Source: a virus
Direction: 5' to 3' (one strand)
Virus record (IMG/VR): IMGVR_UViG_3300044646_000195
Span: 1 to 37,763 of that record
DNA: 37,763 bases
The position numbers and the translations under genes were made by a program. This document shows, in pieces, positions 1 through 37,763 of the stretch; the first letter of the stretch is position 1, and the number at the start of each line of letters is the position of its first letter. The notes beneath the pieces are model-generated. The model saw nothing but the letters and a program-made list of their open reading frames with translations, was not told where the DNA came from and did not search any database.

Positions 1-127
1 AGCATTGTTAGGCGTAGGCGCAAGTCTATTCTGCGGGGGCATAAGAAGTCTCCGGCGTATACGCCAAGGATGCCGCTTGCGGAGCGTCTAATGCAACCGC
101 TTCACCCTGCAATATTCTGCCCTGGAT
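1..127. repeat. Terminal overlap, left copy (assembly circularity signal)
   Basis: Bases 1-127 are identical to 37637-37763, checked by reading both ends. The repeat lies across the junction of the small terminase gene and the ART-like gene, and each copy completes a gene that the other end truncates. It is therefore best read as the overlap of a circular contig. A length of exactly 127 matches a common maximum k-mer in de Bruijn assemblers. This gives a unique length of 37,636 bp. Confidence 0.95.
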
Positions 128-508
128 AACGCGAGACTCCGCTTCTTGCAGTGCCGCCGTGATGCTGATCTGGGATTTGATGTCGATGTTGATTTGCTGC
201 TTCGGCATCCAGTCATGCAAATGGGTGAGGAGTGCCATAGCTGCCTTGCTATCTCCCTCCATAGCCGCTGTGCGCACAACGGAAGCCGCCTCAACCTCAC
301 TATCGGCACGACCTTTCGCCTCGGCAATGGATGCACGCTGATCTAGCGCCAGAAGCCGACGATACTCGATCGGCAACAACCCAGCAGCAAATGCCAAAGC
401 ATCACCTTTTACGCCGAGCTTGGCAGCATCGTAAATCCTGTCCAACACCTCCTGAGTCGCTTTCAACTCACGAGGCTCAAACGGTATAGATCGAAACGTA
501 TCGTCCAT
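26..508 (-). CDS. Terminase small subunit-like protein
   Basis: A 160-aa protein, likely the DNA-recognition subunit of the packaging motor. Residues about 20-55 form a helical region resembling a helix-turn-helix (a GVKGDALAFAAG stretch followed by EYRRLLALD). A long helix rich in A, E and R follows (about 55-100), with a C-terminal oligomerisation-like segment containing ISITAALQEAESR. Length and layout fit small terminases. It is first in the leftward late operon, followed through the circle junction by the ART-like gene (17-nt overlap) and the large terminase. The ATG at 508 is preceded by a GGGGA stretch at suitable spacing. The assignment rests on position and general resemblance; no catalytic motif exists to confirm it. 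Confidence 0.65.
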   Translation of the reverse strand: MDDTFRSIPFEPRELKATQEVLDRIYDAAKLGVKGDALAFAAGLLPIEYRRLLALDQRASIAEAKGRADSEVEAASVVRTAAMEGDSKAAMALLTHLHDWMPKQQINIDIKSQISITAALQEAESRVIQGRILQGEAVALDAPQAASLAYTPETSYAPAE

Positions 509-24752: not shown

Positions 24753-27284
24753 TTACGCCTTAATTACTTTTCCGGTTAACGTCCCGCTCGCCAAGTCAAT
24801 TGCACCGCCAGTTTCGTTTTGGAATCTTACGGTTGGCGTATTCGCAGCTGACACATATCCGGTTAATGTAATTCCTTGCAAATCTTGAGAAAACGTCGGT
24901 AAAACAATATCGCCAATCGACACTCCGCTGGTTGCGTTCATGTTTTGGGTAGCCCCATCGCCATCCACCAGATTTGGCGGGTCATACGTAGAGGCTTGAA
25001 TCTCCCATTCCGATCCTCTCATATACCCAGTCACTGAGTTACGGCTTACCGGCAAGTTTCTGGCATCAACATTTCGCGCAACATAAGCGGTCGTAACATC
25101 GTTAAGTGTCACGGATTTATCAACCGCATATGCGTTCGCAGTGGTAATGGTTGTGGTTGCGCCACTCGGAGATGCCGTAATGGTTTCTCCGATGACGAAT
25201 GGGCCGCCTGTCAATGAAGCGCCAATACCTAGCCTTTTTGATGCAACAACAATTTGGTTTATTACGCCTGTCGCGCCGCTAGTCCCGCCGGTGATGGTGT
25301 CTCCCAGCGCAAACCCAGAAACGCTATTAACAACAATGAACTGATAAAAGTTTGCGCTGAAGTTATCTTTTAAAACGCCATAGCTAGCGTTGTAAAGTGC
25401 CGCTCCAGTATCCGTCAATGACGAACTGGTTGGGGTGCTAAGGCAATTAATAATCGTATTGTTAGAAATTTCAGAATATTTGGTTCTGATGCTGGTAATT
25501 GCTTGGTTGCCAGTTATGATCCCAAATCCCAAGAAATCCGTCACCGTATTTCCAGTAACTCTCACGCTATTTGAGATGTTTGTAAAAAACATTGCGGTTG
25601 TTGACCCAAAACTTAGGTCGTTGTTGGTAACAACAACATCGTCAGCGATAGCGGTAGTTAACGTCGCTCCGCTATCAAACAACGAAATCCCGCCGCAATT
25701 TCCGGTGTTTCCAGAAATAGAAATGTTTTGAAACGGCAGCGCAGCGCTAGCTGTCTTTCTTACCAGTACCGAATTAGGAATTCTTACGCTGCTTATCGAC
25801 GCAAAAGTATTGTTTTGGATGTCAATGCTAATGCGATCTGAAATTGTAGTGTTGCTTATCAACAGTATTGCGTCATTTCCGTTGTTGGTTGTTCCCTGCC
25901 ACGTAAATGAATTATTTTTAATGGTTGTAGTCCCGCCAACAACCATTGTTCCATTGACATAAGCAAAATATACAAACAACGGAAAGTTTGAACTAGCGTT
26001 CGGATTGTTGTTCCAAACGGTATTTCCTTCGATGTTTATTGTCGCGCCTCGAAGGCTTGTGCAATAGATCGGCACCCTTTGGGTGGGGTCCGCTCCTTTA
26101 AAAATATTGTTTTTAACGGAAATAAAATTTCCGCCAACCGTGATTCCTGAATTAATTACGCAGTTGTAATATCCGCTATATTCGGAGTTTTCGTGGAAAT
26201 CTGCCGCTCCAATTGAGCCGCTTGTGTTAAGCGAAGCCCCATCAATTACGATGTATCGATTAGTTACGCTTCCAAGAAAATCGCCGCCGCCAACGGTGAT
26301 TGAATGGCGTGCCGCAGCAAAGTATCCGCCAACAACATTAATGTTTTGGCTGTTTCCGATTGAAAGTCCGTAATCTCCGCCAAACGACGCCGCAAAATCT
26401 TCTTCTGTACTGCATCCCCTGAGCTGCACATTGAAGCATTGAGATACGTAAATTTGAGAATATGAACAATTCCATACCCTTACGTTCTCAAAACAGCTAT
26501 CAACCGCTTTATCGAGCTTTATCCCAAAAATTGGGTTTGCAATGTCTTTCAAGCCCTTCAGTGTAAAATTACGCAACGAACAACTACTTGGATTGTCAAG
26601 GCGATAAATGTTTACTGCGGACGTGGTATAGCTATCAGCTAACCCGCCTTGCAAGTTAACAGTACTGCTAGAAACTGACGCAACTCTAGCCCACTCTCCA
26701 GCCCGATATTCTGGATTTACTGGGCACCAAGACCCATTCGTCGGGTTATAAATAAGAATAATATCGTTGACGTTAAGAGTCGGCGCGCCTGTTAAAACTA
26801 TTGATCTACTTCCGATGGTCGCGTTTGACCCCAAACCTTGAATTTGCGTCAAAGTTCCTGGCGCAGAAACAATGTGTGTTCCGCCAGTTAATGCGGAATA
26901 AGTAGTAGTACTTCCGTCAAATATCGTTGCGCCGATCCCATCTCCTTCTAAACTGACGTTAGTAGGAATCGTCAGGGTTGAAAGAATTTTATACGTACCG
27001 GCAGGCGCATATACGCGCTTTGCGCCACTATTGAGGGCAGCTTGAATTGCTGAGGTATCGTCAACAACACCATTTCCAACCGCGCCAAAATCTTTAACGC
27101 TAACTATATCTCTTAGCTTATCCTGTATTGTTCGCGTTGTTGCACCTGCGCCTGACGCTACATATCCCAAGCTGCTTACTGCGGCTTTTTTTGTAATGCC
27201 ATTTTGAACAACGGGCATTACGTCCGCCGGCGACCCAGGGGACGTTGCCGGTGGAAGTTGGGAAATTTTTATCAGCGTCATCAT
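24753..27284 (-). CDS. Tailspike 2, right-handed beta-helix
   Basis: An 843-aa receptor-binding protein. Residues 1-75 are a virion anchor nearly parallel to that of the other tailspike (LIKISQLPPATSPGSPADVMPVVQNGITKKAAV, GATTRTIQDKLRD). SVKDFGAVGNGVVDDTSAIQAAL (about 80-103) is the pectate-lyase/beta-helix entry motif. A long series of N-rich rungs follows (ISIDIQNNTFASISS, VVTNNDLSFG, VRVTGNTVTDF). The C-terminal part is a separate beta domain. The gene is AT-richer than its neighbours, suggesting acquisition. It probably binds or cleaves surface polysaccharide. Confidence 0.85.
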   Translation of the reverse strand: MMTLIKISQLPPATSPGSPADVMPVVQNGITKKAAVSSLGYVASGAGATTRTIQDKLRDIVSVKDFGAVGNGVVDDTSAIQAALNSGAKRVYAPAGTYKILSTLTIPTNVSLEGDGIGATIFDGSTTTYSALTGGTHIVSAPGTLTQIQGLGSNATIGSRSIVLTGAPTLNVNDIILIYNPTNGSWCPVNPEYRAGEWARVASVSSSTVNLQGGLADSYTTSAVNIYRLDNPSSCSLRNFTLKGLKDIANPIFGIKLDKAVDSCFENVRVWNCSYSQIYVSQCFNVQLRGCSTEEDFAASFGGDYGLSIGNSQNINVVGGYFAAARHSITVGGGDFLGSVTNRYIVIDGASLNTSGSIGAADFHENSEYSGYYNCVINSGITVGGNFISVKNNIFKGADPTQRVPIYCTSLRGATINIEGNTVWNNNPNASSNFPLFVYFAYVNGTMVVGGTTTIKNNSFTWQGTTNNGNDAILLISNTTISDRISIDIQNNTFASISSVRIPNSVLVRKTASAALPFQNISISGNTGNCGGISLFDSGATLTTAIADDVVVTNNDLSFGSTTAMFFTNISNSVRVTGNTVTDFLGFGIITGNQAITSIRTKYSEISNNTIINCLSTPTSSSLTDTGAALYNASYGVLKDNFSANFYQFIVVNSVSGFALGDTITGGTSGATGVINQIVVASKRLGIGASLTGGPFVIGETITASPSGATTTITTANAYAVDKSVTLNDVTTAYVARNVDARNLPVSRNSVTGYMRGSEWEIQASTYDPPNLVDGDGATQNMNATSGVSIGDIVLPTFSQDLQGITLTGYVSAANTPTVRFQNETGGAIDLASGTLTGKVIKA

Positions 27285-29796: not shown

Positions 29797-31839
29797 TTAG
29801 AAGCTGACAAGCGTTGCCGATCCGGTAACTGCCGCAGCCGTGCCGCCAGCGCCAGCATTGATTAACGTGTTTCCAATAATTCCAAGTTCGCCTTGATCCT
29901 GCTGAACAATCGGCGCTTGCGACGAATTGCAACTAATGTAATTCATCGTTACTTTTGAGGTTGTGTTGTCTGTTGCACTGTTGTTAGAAATAATTGAAAC
30001 AGCCGGCGTTGTTGTTGCAGACGCTGACAGAATGTAGTTGCTATGAATCTCCACTAAAGCCTTAGCGGCGTATCCTACGTTCGTGCAATCAATGGCTCTT
30101 TGAATGTTTGCCGACGGCATAATGATCGTGTTGTTAGTTATATAAACACGATCACTGTCTTCTACAAGAATTGCGCCGCCAGCTATGTTGTTATGGATGT
30201 TTACGTCTTTGAACGTATTAACGTCAACAAATCTAACGGTTGTTGCTCCAGTCCCGTTAATTGAAAGCAAATGATTGCCTTCAATATTTACCGACGCATA
30301 TGCTCCACTTCCCGTCAAAACTAGCGGAACAAAACCAGAAACATCTGTTTCAATGTTAAATACGTTGTTAGTAAACCAAGATTTCGCTGCAAGTTTTAGA
30401 ATAATAAGACGCGAATTCGCCGCATCACCATCAAAAAAGAAATTGTTTTGGCTGCAAACAAACCAAGTTAAGGCAACATTGTCGTTAAAAACATATTGGG
30501 ACGAACTCGCTGCGGTTACACGATTGTTATTAAATGTGATGTATCCAGAGCCAGCGCCAAATGCGCTATAGCAGACTGTATCGTTATACCCGCCAGCGGT
30601 TGATCTCAACACATTGTTGCTGATGTTGACGTACGACAATCGCGCCGTCATGTACAGGCACGATTCGGTTACTTCAACAAAGTTACCAAAAAACTTAGTG
30701 TCATTACACTCGTTAATTTTGATGCCGTTTCCGGTGCCTTTAATGTTATTTCCTTCGACCAGAATTCTCATCTGGAACGAAGATGTCCAAGTTGACGAAG
30801 CAAAATCTGATTGACCATCAACTTCAAGCGCATGGTCAAAAGTGCCGTTGATTACATTTCCAGAGCAAATCCCTTGAATGTACGACAACTGGTTTCCGCT
30901 CGCGTCGTATGGGCCAAAGTCGTTTGAGTACAAACGCAATACGCGAAGGCTTCCGATGCTGCCAATCGCCATCCCAAGAAAACGATTGTCTCGACAAACG
31001 AAGTTAATGCACCCCGTTAAATGCGCGCAGACTGTGCTGCGGTCACTGCTGTACCCGTCAAAAACATTGTTGATGAATGACGGAGCAATCGGAGAATACT
31101 TAATTGATAGATCACTAGCCGCGTCATAAAAATATACATTTCCCGCATAGCCAATGTGTACCGTGAAGCCGTTGTCCACGACATTGTTGTTTTCAAACCG
31201 GAGATTTTCTCCAGCTTGGAAAAACATGCAGCGATCTTGCCCACCTTCAAAGTTGTTGTGGTGGATATAAGTATTGTTGCTAAACTGACCGCCGATGCTG
31301 GGAAAGTACGAGCCGAATCCAGCAGCCAACGCGGGGAAAGACGCGTTGTTAGTTGTAAACGTAAATCCCGTAATTTCTACGTTTTCCGATCCTCTTTTTA
31401 GAAAGAACGCTGCGCTAACCTTGTATTGCCCGGCGCCACCAACCGTCGTTGAGTTGACATTATCGTGGCTTTGAATAATTGTTGACCCGTTTCCGTTAAG
31501 TTTAATGTTTCCAGTTTCAATAAAAATCATCTTAACGGCATAACTACCAGCCGGAAAATCTACAACCGCGCCGACGGTTTCTGCGTAATCAACCGCAGCT
31601 TTAATAGCAGTCGTATCGTCTGTTACGCCGTCGCCAACTGCGCCGAAGTCTTTAACACTAACGGTATCGCGCAGTTTGTCCTGAATAGTGCGCGCGGTCG
31701 CGCCAGAACCCGCAGCAAGATAGCCGAGCTGATTAATTGCCGCTTTACGGGTGATTCCCGCCTGGACGATAGGCAGCACATCCGATGGCGATACCGGAGA
31801 ACTCGCAACCGGAAGTTGTGAAATCTTGATGAGGGCCAC
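29797..31839 (-). CDS. Tailspike 1, right-handed beta-helix
   Basis: A 680-aa receptor-binding protein. Residues 1-75 are the same anchor type as in tailspike 2 (LIKISQLPVASSPVSPSDVLPIVQAGITRKAAI, GATARTIQDKLRD), followed by SVKDFGAVGDGVTDDTTAIKAAV, the beta-helix entry motif. Many N-rich rungs follow (ENVEITGFTFTTNNA, NTYIHHNNFEGG, VNISNNVLRST, FKDVNIHNNIAGG). After the anchor and entry motif, the two spikes diverge. The role is adsorption, perhaps with glycan hydrolysis, though I cannot pick out catalytic residues. Confidence 0.85.
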   Translation of the reverse strand: MALIKISQLPVASSPVSPSDVLPIVQAGITRKAAINQLGYLAAGSGATARTIQDKLRDTVSVKDFGAVGDGVTDDTTAIKAAVDYAETVGAVVDFPAGSYAVKMIFIETGNIKLNGNGSTIIQSHDNVNSTTVGGAGQYKVSAAFFLKRGSENVEITGFTFTTNNASFPALAAGFGSYFPSIGGQFSNNTYIHHNNFEGGQDRCMFFQAGENLRFENNNVVDNGFTVHIGYAGNVYFYDAASDLSIKYSPIAPSFINNVFDGYSSDRSTVCAHLTGCINFVCRDNRFLGMAIGSIGSLRVLRLYSNDFGPYDASGNQLSYIQGICSGNVINGTFDHALEVDGQSDFASSTWTSSFQMRILVEGNNIKGTGNGIKINECNDTKFFGNFVEVTESCLYMTARLSYVNISNNVLRSTAGGYNDTVCYSAFGAGSGYITFNNNRVTAASSSQYVFNDNVALTWFVCSQNNFFFDGDAANSRLIILKLAAKSWFTNNVFNIETDVSGFVPLVLTGSGAYASVNIEGNHLLSINGTGATTVRFVDVNTFKDVNIHNNIAGGAILVEDSDRVYITNNTIIMPSANIQRAIDCTNVGYAAKALVEIHSNYILSASATTTPAVSIISNNSATDNTTSKVTMNYISCNSSQAPIVQQDQGELGIIGNTLINAGAGGTAAAVTGSATLVSF

Positions 31840-31855: not shown

Positions 31856-32221
31856 TTAGGCCAAGAAGCGCAGTTTGTACAAAGTGCTGAGATAAAGAGC
31901 AACAATCTCGTCAATGATGTTTTGGATCGCGGAGTCTTTCTCTTCGCAAACCTTGTAGCGGTTTGACTCAATCTCATCAAGTGAGTCCTGCAAAAACTCA
32001 ACAATGTTGCCGTTTTTGGATTTCGCCGATTGCAGCGAGATCGGCCCAATTAGACCGTGACGGCCTTGATAGGCTTCGGCAAAGTCGTCAGCCAAGTCAA
32101 CAACCTTATCGTAAAACGCCCCGAGCGCCTTGTGTTTGGCGTAGCTGCGCGTGTTGAGATGCACAGAATGGGTAACATCTCGCGCCAAAAACAAATGACC
32201 TACAAAATCAGCCGCTTTCAT
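31856..32221 (-). CDS. DUF5856-like protein
   Basis: A 121-aa, all-helical protein. The segment VHLNTRSYAKHKALGAFYDKVVDLADDFAEAYQGRHGLIG is characteristic of a conserved phage family (DUF5856) with a pattern somewhat like ferritin/Dps helices; H21, H30 and E49-type positions could bind metal but this is speculation. It overlaps the portal stop by 4 nt (ATGA). The role is unknown; its neighbours suggest virion association or a late function. Confidence 0.72.
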   Translation of the reverse strand: MKAADFVGHLFLARDVTHSVHLNTRSYAKHKALGAFYDKVVDLADDFAEAYQGRHGLIGPISLQSAKSKNGNIVEFLQDSLDEIESNRYKVCEEKDSAIQNIIDEIVALYLSTLYKLRFLA

Positions 32222-35180: not shown

Positions 35181-36710
35181 TTAGGCGCCCATCCAAGAGT
35201 TAACCATGCTGCCGGTGTCGCTTGTCGTGACGCGGCGCGGTCGTTCTCGATATTCGCGGTTTGCAACAGGGAAAGCGAATGTGCAGGCGAGAGCGTCAGC
35301 CGCATCGGGCGATGCCAGTCCGCGAGACTTCATTTCCTTTTTACTTTCCAACTGAATCGACCCTGCCGAATTCGGCTTTTGATGCGGTGCGAGGAGGTCG
35401 GCTTTCAGTTGGCGATCTTGCGGGATAGAGGCTGTTTGCAGCCATTCACGCATTTGCCCCCAGAGTTCGGCGCGTTTATTCGCGTACATCTGCGGGGTTT
35501 TAGCCTTCCAACTAAAGTTTACGCCCCTGACAACCTTATACCGCTGCTCTTTTAAGCGGTCAAGAATGCCATATCCGAGTCCGCCTTCATCGAGAACGAC
35601 TAGGGCAGGATTGAACTCTTCAATCGCGTCAATGACTCGACCGACCGTTTCCATTGTGTCTTCACCTTGGTAGCGACGGATTGCCACCAGGTCTCTTCCT
35701 TGTCGGACAACAATAACCGTGCTGTCCGCGCCGCTTCGCGCCGGATCAACTCCGATGATGCGTGGCGCGCTATCGTCCCTGTACCGCTCGCGAGTTGCTG
35801 CACTTTCCACGTAGGAAGGAGGAATAAATTGGTCGGAGTCGTCGGTAGGGAACTGGCCGTAGACTTCGATTTTGGCTTGGCGCGAGTCCGCACCGTATTC
35901 GGCGATGATTTGCTCGTAGACCGCTTTGTCGGTGTCTTCGACTTCGCGGGCATCGATGTTTTGCGTGGACCAGAAGTTTCGTTTTGCATTGAAAGCCTCA
36001 AAAAAGTACCCCTCGTTACGACGCGGGTTGCTGAACGCGCACCAAAAACGGTTCGGCGTGTTTTCCGTAAAGAAGCCCGCCGTCACCGACCAAATGGAAT
36101 CGGGAATGCCCGACGCCTCATCGAATATCACCATGACGCCATCGTGGTTGTGGACACCGGCATACGAATCCGGGTTTTCTTCCGACCACAGGCGGCCTTC
36201 GACGGACCAATAGCGCGTGCCTTTCTTGAGGTCGCGTTCAACGAGTTCAGCGATCCACTTGGCGGGCATCACGCGGGTGGCACTCAACTCAAACCAATGC
36301 GAGTTAATCAGGAGCGCCGCCCATTTGGTGATTTCTGCCCAAGTGACTGAGCGGAGCTGCGCTTCGGAGTTCGCCGAGACAATCGTGGTACTGCCGATAC
36401 GGGTTGTGAGCATCCAAAGGATGAGCCACGACACCAGCGCAGATTTACCGATACCGCGTCCTGAAGCCGTTGCCATACGCAAGACTTCGTAAGAGGTAAG
36501 GTCTTTCTGTTTAGCGATGTGGTCGCGTACTTGGCGCAGCACCTGACGCTGCCATTTGCGCGGACCTTTAAAGTGTTCGAGGGGCGTATTCTTTTGCCCC
36601 CACGGAAACACGAATAGCACGAAGGCTTCTGGGTCGTCCTTGACGGCGGCAGACCAGAGCTTGCTCATTAGAGCCTGCTCGTCCTCCGGGCTATAGATTG
36701 GCAGTTGCAT
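35181..36710 (-). CDS. terL: Terminase large subunit
   Basis: A 509-aa packaging ATPase-nuclease. Walker A is GRGIGKS (84-90), Walker B VMVIFDEAS (191-199, with catalytic E), and a coupling-like motif is around FSNPRR (225-230). The nuclease domain has D321 in IIGVDPARSGADST, D373 in LVVLDEGGLGYG, and D468/D471 in SPDAADAL. All expected catalytic acids are present. The ATG shares one base with the ART-like gene stop (TAATG). It cuts and pumps concatemeric DNA into the prohead, probably by a headful mechanism. Confidence 0.96.
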   Translation of the reverse strand: MQLPIYSPEDEQALMSKLWSAAVKDDPEAFVLFVFPWGQKNTPLEHFKGPRKWQRQVLRQVRDHIAKQKDLTSYEVLRMATASGRGIGKSALVSWLILWMLTTRIGSTTIVSANSEAQLRSVTWAEITKWAALLINSHWFELSATRVMPAKWIAELVERDLKKGTRYWSVEGRLWSEENPDSYAGVHNHDGVMVIFDEASGIPDSIWSVTAGFFTENTPNRFWCAFSNPRRNEGYFFEAFNAKRNFWSTQNIDAREVEDTDKAVYEQIIAEYGADSRQAKIEVYGQFPTDDSDQFIPPSYVESAATRERYRDDSAPRIIGVDPARSGADSTVIVVRQGRDLVAIRRYQGEDTMETVGRVIDAIEEFNPALVVLDEGGLGYGILDRLKEQRYKVVRGVNFSWKAKTPQMYANKRAELWGQMREWLQTASIPQDRQLKADLLAPHQKPNSAGSIQLESKKEMKSRGLASPDAADALACTFAFPVANREYRERPRRVTTSDTGSMVNSWMGA

Positions 36711-37678
36711 TAATCAATAAACTCGGAAATACGTTCAATTTGTTTGGGATCAATCGCAACAATTTGCGACGGCATGGAGCTTGCTGCAAATTCTGGGCGT
36801 TGGTAAATAAACCCATCAAACCCATTTTTCTTGAGCAATTCAACATCGAAGTCATTAATAACTTCTGGATTCATCAACCTAAACAATTTTCCTTGTCTAG
36901 CAGCGGCAAGCAGATTTTTTTCTTGTTCTTTCCAAGTATCTGCATGGGCCATAGTTTTTCCCGCCACAACGTCATCTACGCTGTTAGCAGCAACTAATCC
37001 GCCTTTGCTCAAAAAACGTGGGTCTTTTTTAATTTGCTCCAAAACCGCTTTTTCAGAAACAGGCAAAATTGAGCGTGGTACGGAACGCACGCCACTATTG
37101 ATCTGCAAAACAGGCGCGGGGTTTTTGACTTTAACGTCGGCTTTAATAACGTGACGACCAAAAATTTGTGCCGTTGGGTCGTTAACGTCTGGCGAAAAGT
37201 AATAGCCTTGTGGACCAGCAAACGAAACGCCGATTTTGTTTTTTTCTTTACGAAACTCGCCTTCAAACGGCGTTGTCGTTCTGTGATACCCAATAATCTC
37301 TGACTTCACCGGCGCAGGTTGTCCACGCATTCCTGGCGTCACGTTCTCGCCGATCAATTCGCCAAGACCAAGCGCACCAGAAGCGGCTCGTTGGCGGGCT
37401 TCGCGAAGCATATCCAAAACAATACGCGGATCGTCGCTTATCTGACGCGCTGCCTCAAGCAAGGCTTTAGCCGTCACAACGGGCTGCGTCACCATTTGTT
37501 TGGTGCCTTCTAGGCCAGAAACAAATCCACGCCCAAGGCCAATAGAAAGGTTTTCGAGTTCGCGGCGCGGAACAAATTGCGTAGGCGGAGGCGGCAGTAT
37601 TCCTGCGTCAAATGGCACAGGGACGCTATAAGCCAAAGCATTGTTAGGCGTAGGCGCAAGTCTATTCTGCGGGGGCAT
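36710..37678 (-). CDS. ADP-ribosyltransferase-like (ART-PolyVal-type) protein
   Basis: A 322-aa protein. Residues 1-120 are Pro-rich then helical (a linker or virion-association part). From about 128 comes an ART-like domain: IIGYHRTT with H132, then GVSFAGPQGYYFSPD with Y159/Y160, FGRHVIKADVKVKNPAPV, and near the end KKNGFDGFIY followed by SQIVAIDPKQIERI. This H-Y-(E/Q) layout with a KNP and a GyDG element is that of ART domains in phage polyvalent proteins; Q305 or a nearby residue would stand for the usual Glu. The gene lies between the terminase genes and crosses the circle junction (its ATG equals 40-42). Substrate unknown; no activity is proven. Confidence 0.65.
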   Translation of the reverse strand: MPPQNRLAPTPNNALAYSVPVPFDAGILPPPPTQFVPRRELENLSIGLGRGFVSGLEGTKQMVTQPVVTAKALLEAARQISDDPRIVLDMLREARQRAASGALGLGELIGENVTPGMRGQPAPVKSEIIGYHRTTTPFEGEFRKEKNKIGVSFAGPQGYYFSPDVNDPTAQIFGRHVIKADVKVKNPAPVLQINSGVRSVPRSILPVSEKAVLEQIKKDPRFLSKGGLVAANSVDDVVAGKTMAHADTWKEQEKNLLAAARQGKLFRLMNPEVINDFDVELLKKNGFDGFIYQRPEFAASSMPSQIVAIDPKQIERISEFID

Positions 37679-37763
37679 AAGAAGTCTCCGGCGTATACGC
37701 CAAGGATGCCGCTTGCGGAGCGTCTAATGCAACCGCTTCACCCTGCAATATTCTGCCCTGGAT
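37637..37763. repeat. Terminal overlap, right copy
   Basis: Exact second copy of 1-127. It contains the start codon of the ART-like gene (37676-37678, equal to 40-42) and the 3' end of the small terminase gene. It should be trimmed when the sequence is circularised. A real direct terminal repeat is possible, but a P22-type headful packager normally has circularly permuted ends, which assemble as a circle. Confidence 0.95.

What the first reader, a model, noticed from the sequence alone, without database searches (positions are those of the whole stretch)
36710..37678. ADP-ribosyltransferase-like gene wedged between small and large terminase
The C-terminal half has an H-Y plus late Q/E arrangement with KNP and GFDGF elements, as in ART domains of phage polyvalent proteins. 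It is joined to the terminase genes by overlaps on both sides. An ART expressed late and together with packaging genes suggests modification of a virion or host target during assembly, or packaging and delivery at the next infection.
Basis: partly seen in the sequence, partly recalled or inferred. Interest (0 to 1): 0.8.

Follow-up and report, generated by a model that had tools for sequence, protein, structure and literature searches.

The report
Swappable phage effector in terminase operon
A gene between the two DNA-packaging genes of an uncultured P22-like phage has a constant front half and an exchangeable enzyme back half, here probably an ADP-ribosyltransferase, so the slot looks like a cassette for swapping proteins used against the host cell.

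Summary
The gene is real. The window is a complete P22-like phage with 127-bp identical ends; across that junction the gene overlaps a TerS-like gene by 17 bp and TerL by 1 bp. The ART call is probably right: residues 131-318 hit ART-PolyVal (E 0.0014, below cut-off), and the AlphaFold model matches phage PolyVal ARTs, AcrIF11 and PARP catalytic domains. H132, Y160 and Q305 are conserved; Y159 and D310 are not, so the apparent triad is H-Y-Q.

The first ~118 residues are a constant leader found in 58 distinct proteins from two phage lineages, in the terminase operon wherever testable. The C-terminal half is swapped: three ART types, GNAT, zincin (LPD23), a helical domain, singletons. Near-identical leaders carry unrelated modules, near-identical modules sit behind diverged leaders, and phages with identical TerL carry different modules. 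The focal ART also occurs behind an unrelated leader. No module-specific immunity gene was seen. The leader is absent from 50,697 phage records.

Most likely these are exchangeable anti-host or anti-defence effectors made late with packaging proteins, possibly packaged and ejected. Delivery, activity and target are inferred.

The parts
36710..37678 (-). Cargo gene, 322 aa: constant leader plus exchangeable ART-like module, stop included
37325..37678 (-). Leader, residues 1-118 (Pro-rich start, then three predicted helices at 40-61, 66-79 and 84-99, low pLDDT); shared by 58 distinct proteins with different C-termini
36713..37312 (-). ART-like module, residues 123-322
   Evidence: Pfam PF18760 E 0.0014; fold matches; family alignment
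37283..37285 (-). Codon of H132, invariant in the module family
37199..37201 (-). Codon of Y160, invariant in the module family (Y159 is F in L101)
36764..36766 (-). Codon of Q305, invariant in the module family; candidate third active-site position
   Evidence: end of alignment to PARP1
26..508 (-). TerS-like gene, 160 aa, upstream of the cargo gene across the circular junction (its tail is repeated at 37662-37763)
35181..36710 (-). Terminase large subunit, 509 aa, starts on the last base of the cargo gene

Best explanation
The gene is one allele of a polymorphic effector slot in the terminase operon. A constant ~118-residue leader is followed by an exchangeable enzymatic module, here a diverged H-Y-Q ADP-ribosyltransferase of the PARP/diphtheria/PolyVal kind. 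Recombination near the end of the leader and at the TerL start replaces the module while leaving the coupled TerS-X-TerL arrangement intact. The protein is made late with the packaging enzymes. Most likely the leader ties it to the assembling head or packaging complex, it leaves with the DNA, and in the next cell it modifies a host protein, probably part of a defence system or of host gene expression; turnover of modules would reflect changing host defences. Shown: operon position, leader/module architecture, module exchange, ART-like fold, conserved H and Y. Inferred: enzymatic activity, virion packaging, ejection, kind of target.
For: Constant leader with at least eight unrelated C-terminal module groups. 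Near-identical leaders with unrelated modules and near-identical modules behind diverged leaders. Identical TerL with different modules; 12 module changes on the TerL tree against a shuffled mean of 13.5. 17 of 18 lineage-1 loci keep the 1-bp TerL overlap, so modules are swapped in frame without a partner gene. Empty site TerS-TerL in phage DSL-LC05. ART fold; nearest solved structure 6kyf is AcrIF11, a phage ADP-ribosyltransferase that disables CRISPR-Cas. Same ART behind an unrelated leader between TerL and portal, and a further ART behind that leader beside an ejection-like gene. Published arguments that phage ARTs beside packaging genes and polyvalent domains are packaged and injected: PMC9503650, PMC5512222.
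Against: No direct evidence for packaging, and the leader matches no known virion protein family. PF18760 score is below its cut-off; profile comparison with the other ART modules was not significant. The third residue is Q, without a carboxylate, and D310 is not conserved. A module-only AF2 model with four sequences did not reproduce the ART match.
Confidence: 0.55

Rival explanations
1. Late in-cell effector that is not packaged: the protein acts in the producing cell late in infection, protecting assembly or packaging from host defences that sense terminase or portal, or shutting off the host. The leader docks it to terminase or procapsid.
For: Coupling to TerS and TerL by overlaps; PMC9503650 raises this alternative for ARTs encoded beside packaging genes.
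Against: Polyvalent-type domains are argued to act early after injection; a second leader with ARTs lies beside an ejection-like gene.
Confidence: 0.25
2. Polymorphic toxin for competition, as proposed for MuF toxins: the module poisons cells that lack an immunity protein.
For: Constant N-terminus, variable C-terminus, packaging-module location (compare PMC5576092).
Against: No MuF domain in 58 proteins. In lineage 1 there is no room for an immunity gene between cargo and TerL (17 of 18 loci overlap by 1 bp), and in lineage 2 the small gene between them is largely the same whatever the module.
Confidence: 0.1
3. The ART fold is a pseudoenzyme or binding module, and the leader carries the function, for instance as an accessory packaging factor.
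For: The leader is the common part; the third residue is Q; DSL-LC05 lacks the gene, so at most an accessory role in packaging.
Against: The ART module is under strong purifying selection (dN/dS 0.11-0.13), and H, Y and Q are invariant. Repeated acquisition of enzyme folds argues for selection on the enzymes.
Confidence: 0.1

Closest known systems
Phage polyvalent proteins with ART-PolyVal (PF18760) and LPD domains (Iyer et al. 2017, PMC5512222)
   Same: Same domain repertoire (ART, zincin/LPD23), late-gene context, likely host-directed
   Different: Here one enzyme per protein behind a constant leader, exchanged at a fixed slot; the focal ART is below the PF18760 cut-off and lacks the H-Y-D third residue
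MuF polymorphic toxins of temperate phages (Jamet et al. 2017, PMC5576092)
   Same: Constant N-terminus plus variable C-terminal effector in the DNA packaging module; ARTs among the effectors
   Different: No MuF domain; no adjacent module-specific immunity ORF; slot lies at the terminase genes of podovirus-like phages
AcrIF11 (PDB 6kyf; PMC12421852)
   Same: Small phage ART with H-Y core; first-ranked PDB match of the model
   Different: Stand-alone anti-CRISPR with essential acidic D115; no leader and no sequence similarity detected here; target of the present protein unknown
Phage T4 Alt
   Same: Model for a late-made ART injected with the DNA to modify host RNA polymerase (as described in PMC5512222)
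   Different: R-S-E class ART with a different context; packaging of the present protein is untested
PARP1/PARP2 catalytic domains
   Same: Fold match over model residues 123-322, H and Y in equivalent order
   Different: Q in place of the catalytic Glu; Z 6.3-6.8 only; about 10-14% identity

Membership tests
ART superfamily, H-Y-x (PARP/diphtheria-like) | ART split-beta core fold | tested here: met
   AF2 model matched phage PolyVal ARTs at E 9.8e-5 and PARP domains at Z 6.3-6.8; moderate pLDDT, and a module-only model did not reproduce it
ART superfamily, H-Y-x (PARP/diphtheria-like) | Conserved His in strand 1 and Tyr in strand 2 | tested here: met
   H132 and Y160 lie in the first two predicted strands and are invariant in the module family
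ART superfamily, H-Y-x (PARP/diphtheria-like) | NAD-dependent ADP-ribosyl transfer | not testable with these tools
   Needs an enzyme assay
ART-PolyVal (PF18760) | Score above the Pfam gathering cut-off | tested here: not met
   19.8 bits against 31.2; a sister module (L016) does pass with 32.0
ART-PolyVal (PF18760) | H-Y-D active site (PMC5512222) | tested here: not met
   H and Y present; third conserved residue is Q305, and D310 is N in L017 and K in L101
Polyvalent proteins | Several disparate domains in one large polypeptide | tested here: not met
   Leader plus one enzymatic domain in 322 aa; some longer sister proteins have further C-terminal segments
Polyvalent proteins | Phage late-gene neighbourhood | tested here: met
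   Between TerS-like gene and TerL
MuF polymorphic toxins | MuF domain at the N-terminus | tested here: not met
   No MuF match in Pfam for the 58 proteins
MuF polymorphic toxins | Small immunity ORF directly downstream | tested here: not met
   Lineage 1: 17 of 18 overlap TerL by 1 bp; lineage 2: mostly one common small gene regardless of module
MuF polymorphic toxins | Constant N-terminal part with variable C-terminal effector | tested here: met
   exchange shown
Virion-delivered effectors | Presence in the virion and entry into the next host | not testable with these tools
   Needs virion proteomics

The most novel reading that the evidence does not exclude
The leader defines a previously unnamed delivery or docking signal of uncultured podovirus-like phages, and the terminase operon holds a dedicated slot for exchangeable, virion-delivered enzymes (ART, GNAT, zincin and unknown folds) whose allele turnover tracks host defences. 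Within the commonest ART allele two hypervariable inserts recombine independently, which may change target choice.
Probability: 0.4. Interest if true: 0.8.

Novelty: new variant of a known kind. Interest (0 to 1): 0.62.

Why it matters
It gives a defined position in a common type of environmental phage where new anti-host or anti-defence enzymes can be found simply by reading what follows the leader. The unknown modules (L010/L036, L037, L089) become candidate new effectors. A constant leader also makes a long-standing question testable: how short-tailed phages choose which proteins to load into the head and eject.

Tried and rejected
PHROGs: no hit for the focal protein. tblastn of the protein and of two leader versions against 50,697 phage records: no match. 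Two genome-contig scans with leader profiles: candidates, none confirmed, so host and prophage state stay unknown. hhalign of the focal ART against the other ART modules: not significant, the profiles hold too few sequences. PDB sequence search: no relative; the HIV gp41 hits of the ART3 profile are short matches that I read as artefacts of a Gly/Ser-rich linker. Module-only AF2 model and its fold searches: no ART match; the first 66 residues were not modelled with confidence. MuF and toxin-immunity readings were considered and are disfavoured. Alignment A7 was discarded because MAFFT misplaced the L101 fragment. Literature searches for a described effector in a terminase slot gave nothing on point.

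Full report
What is there. The window is an IMG/VR virus record with 127-bp identical ends, so it is most likely a complete, circularly assembled genome of 37,636 bp. Its late genes are P22-like: TerL, portal, major head protein, head closure Hc3, DNA ejection protein and an infection-released protein by PHROGs. The finding lies at the very end of the record. Its identity as TerS rests on position and a short match to an annotated TerS. The cargo gene overlaps it by 17 bp and overlaps the TerL start by 1 bp. These overlaps are not chance: 17 of 18 distinct lineage-1 relatives keep the 1-bp TerL overlap, and those with a readable TerS end keep a 14 or 17-bp overlap. The coding sequence is under purifying selection.

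The C-terminal half. Pfam ART-PolyVal matches residues 131-318 at E 0.0014, below the curated cut-off. AlphaFold with 30 sequences gave a poor leader and a moderately confident C-terminal half. Foldseek against viral predictions returned phage proteins named PolyVal ADP-ribosyltransferase at E 9.8e-5 and probability 1.00. Against the PDB the first rank was 6kyf at E 0.0093, followed by PARP ART domains among weaker rows. 6kyf is AcrIF11, an ADP-ribosyltransferase anti-CRISPR. VIA-align listed only PARP-family catalytic domains in its top 50, Z 6.3-6.8, with model 123-322 mostly on PARP1 853-1005 or the equivalent. A Z in that range is middling by itself; the weight comes from the uniform list, the sequence hit and the conserved residues together. 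If the ends of that alignment are ungapped, H132 falls on PARP1 H862 and Q305 on E988, and GYYF resembles the PARP GIYF around Y896 (inference; PARP1 residue roles from general knowledge). In the module family, H132, Y160 and Q305 are invariant down to 53% identity, while Y159 and D310 vary. The module is thus H-Y-Q. By general knowledge PARP-family proteins without the Glu can be mono-transferases or inactive, so activity is open. A module-only model with four sequences failed to show the fold.

The front half and the module swap. A search with the whole protein returned relatives that match only residues 1-120. Reading those genes showed the same leader joined to different C-termini. With the leader as query, 94 loci gave 58 distinct proteins. 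All-against-all comparison of what follows the leader gives these groups: a commoner ART type here called ART3 (30 proteins), an HExxH zincin type (15), the focal ART (3), a second ART type with a WHGS motif here called ART2 (3; assigned by motif, no Pfam match), a GNAT type (3), a helical type (2), and singletons L037 and L089. Pfam supports ART-PolyVal, LPD23/DUF6782 and acetyltransferase assignments. No family above its cut-off was found for the leader.

Exchange is recent and repeated. L005, L016 and L018 share leaders at 95-97% nucleotide identity, then have unrelated modules, then similarity returns in the last few codons and in TerL; L010/L011 and L014/L015 behave the same. Conversely the GNAT modules of L006, L009 and L012 differ by 0-2 of 519 nt behind leaders that differ at 18-24% of sites, and the focal ART of the window and L005 is closer (dS 0.72) than their leaders (dS 2.0). 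On a TerL tree the module type needs 12 changes where 7 is the least possible and shuffling gives 13.5; L015 and L029 have identical TerL over the compared stretch and different modules. Phage DSL-LC05, 67% identical in TerL, shows the empty site with TerS abutting TerL.

Wider pattern. The same leader family occurs in a second lineage with a different 446-aa TerL, where a largely shared small gene lies between the cargo gene and TerL. The focal ART also occurs behind an unrelated leader between a 419-aa TerL-like gene and a portal-like gene (these two named from sequence, not scanned), and that second leader carries yet another ART-like module beside an ejection-like gene in L104. In the ART3 type the catalytic framework is about 78% identical at the median, whereas the two inserts are around 20% identical and recombine: eight pairs share insert 1 at 92% or more with insert 2 at 26% or less, and two pairs show the reverse.

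How it most likely works. A late protein is translated together with the terminase subunits. The leader is the only part common to all alleles and so should carry the shared function, which I take to be docking or loading at the head. The modules are mostly enzymes that modify or cut proteins, as in polyvalent proteins, which are inferred to be injected (PMC5512222), and as argued for phage ARTs beside packaging genes (PMC9503650). Allele turnover without a partner gene fits host-directed effectors better than toxin-immunity pairs. The operon, leader, swap and fold are shown; the loading, ejection, enzymology and target are inferred.

Relation to known systems. In architecture it works like MuF toxins and polyvalent proteins, but the MuF domain, the adjacent immunity gene and the multi-enzyme architecture were tested and not met, and the focal ART fails the curated cut-off and the H-Y-D rule of ART-PolyVal. 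I therefore call it a new variant of a known kind.

Noticed in passing
window 1-127 and 37637-37763: 127-bp identical ends: the record is a complete circular assembly, so features at either edge of the window continue at the other.
   Followed up: yes
L016, L020, L042-L094 (ART3 modules): The commonest ART module has a conserved catalytic framework and two hypervariable inserts that recombine independently between phages.
   Followed up: partly
L101 845-1816, L102, L104 3998-5536, L105: A second, unrelated N-terminal leader (MATGAYYGNPNI...) also carries different ART modules in the packaging or ejection gene region.
   Followed up: partly
L010 1778-2632, L036 848-1714, L037 6-773, L089 4875-5798: Leader proteins whose C-terminal modules have no convincing Pfam family: candidate unknown effectors.
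   Followed up: partly
window 31856-32221: 121-aa protein (PHROG 858) downstream of the portal; its homolog sits upstream of the leader gene, often directly, in the second phage lineage.
   Followed up: no
window 24753-27284 and 29797-31839: Two large tailspike-like proteins with near-matching N-terminal segments (LIKISQLP...) and different remainders, probably alternative receptor-binding proteins.
   Followed up: no
L044, L083, L088 between the cargo gene and TerL: A 1.6-kb stretch with 131-aa and ~402-aa ORFs shared by the three loci, the longer one looking ParB/methyltransferase-like by eye.
   Followed up: no
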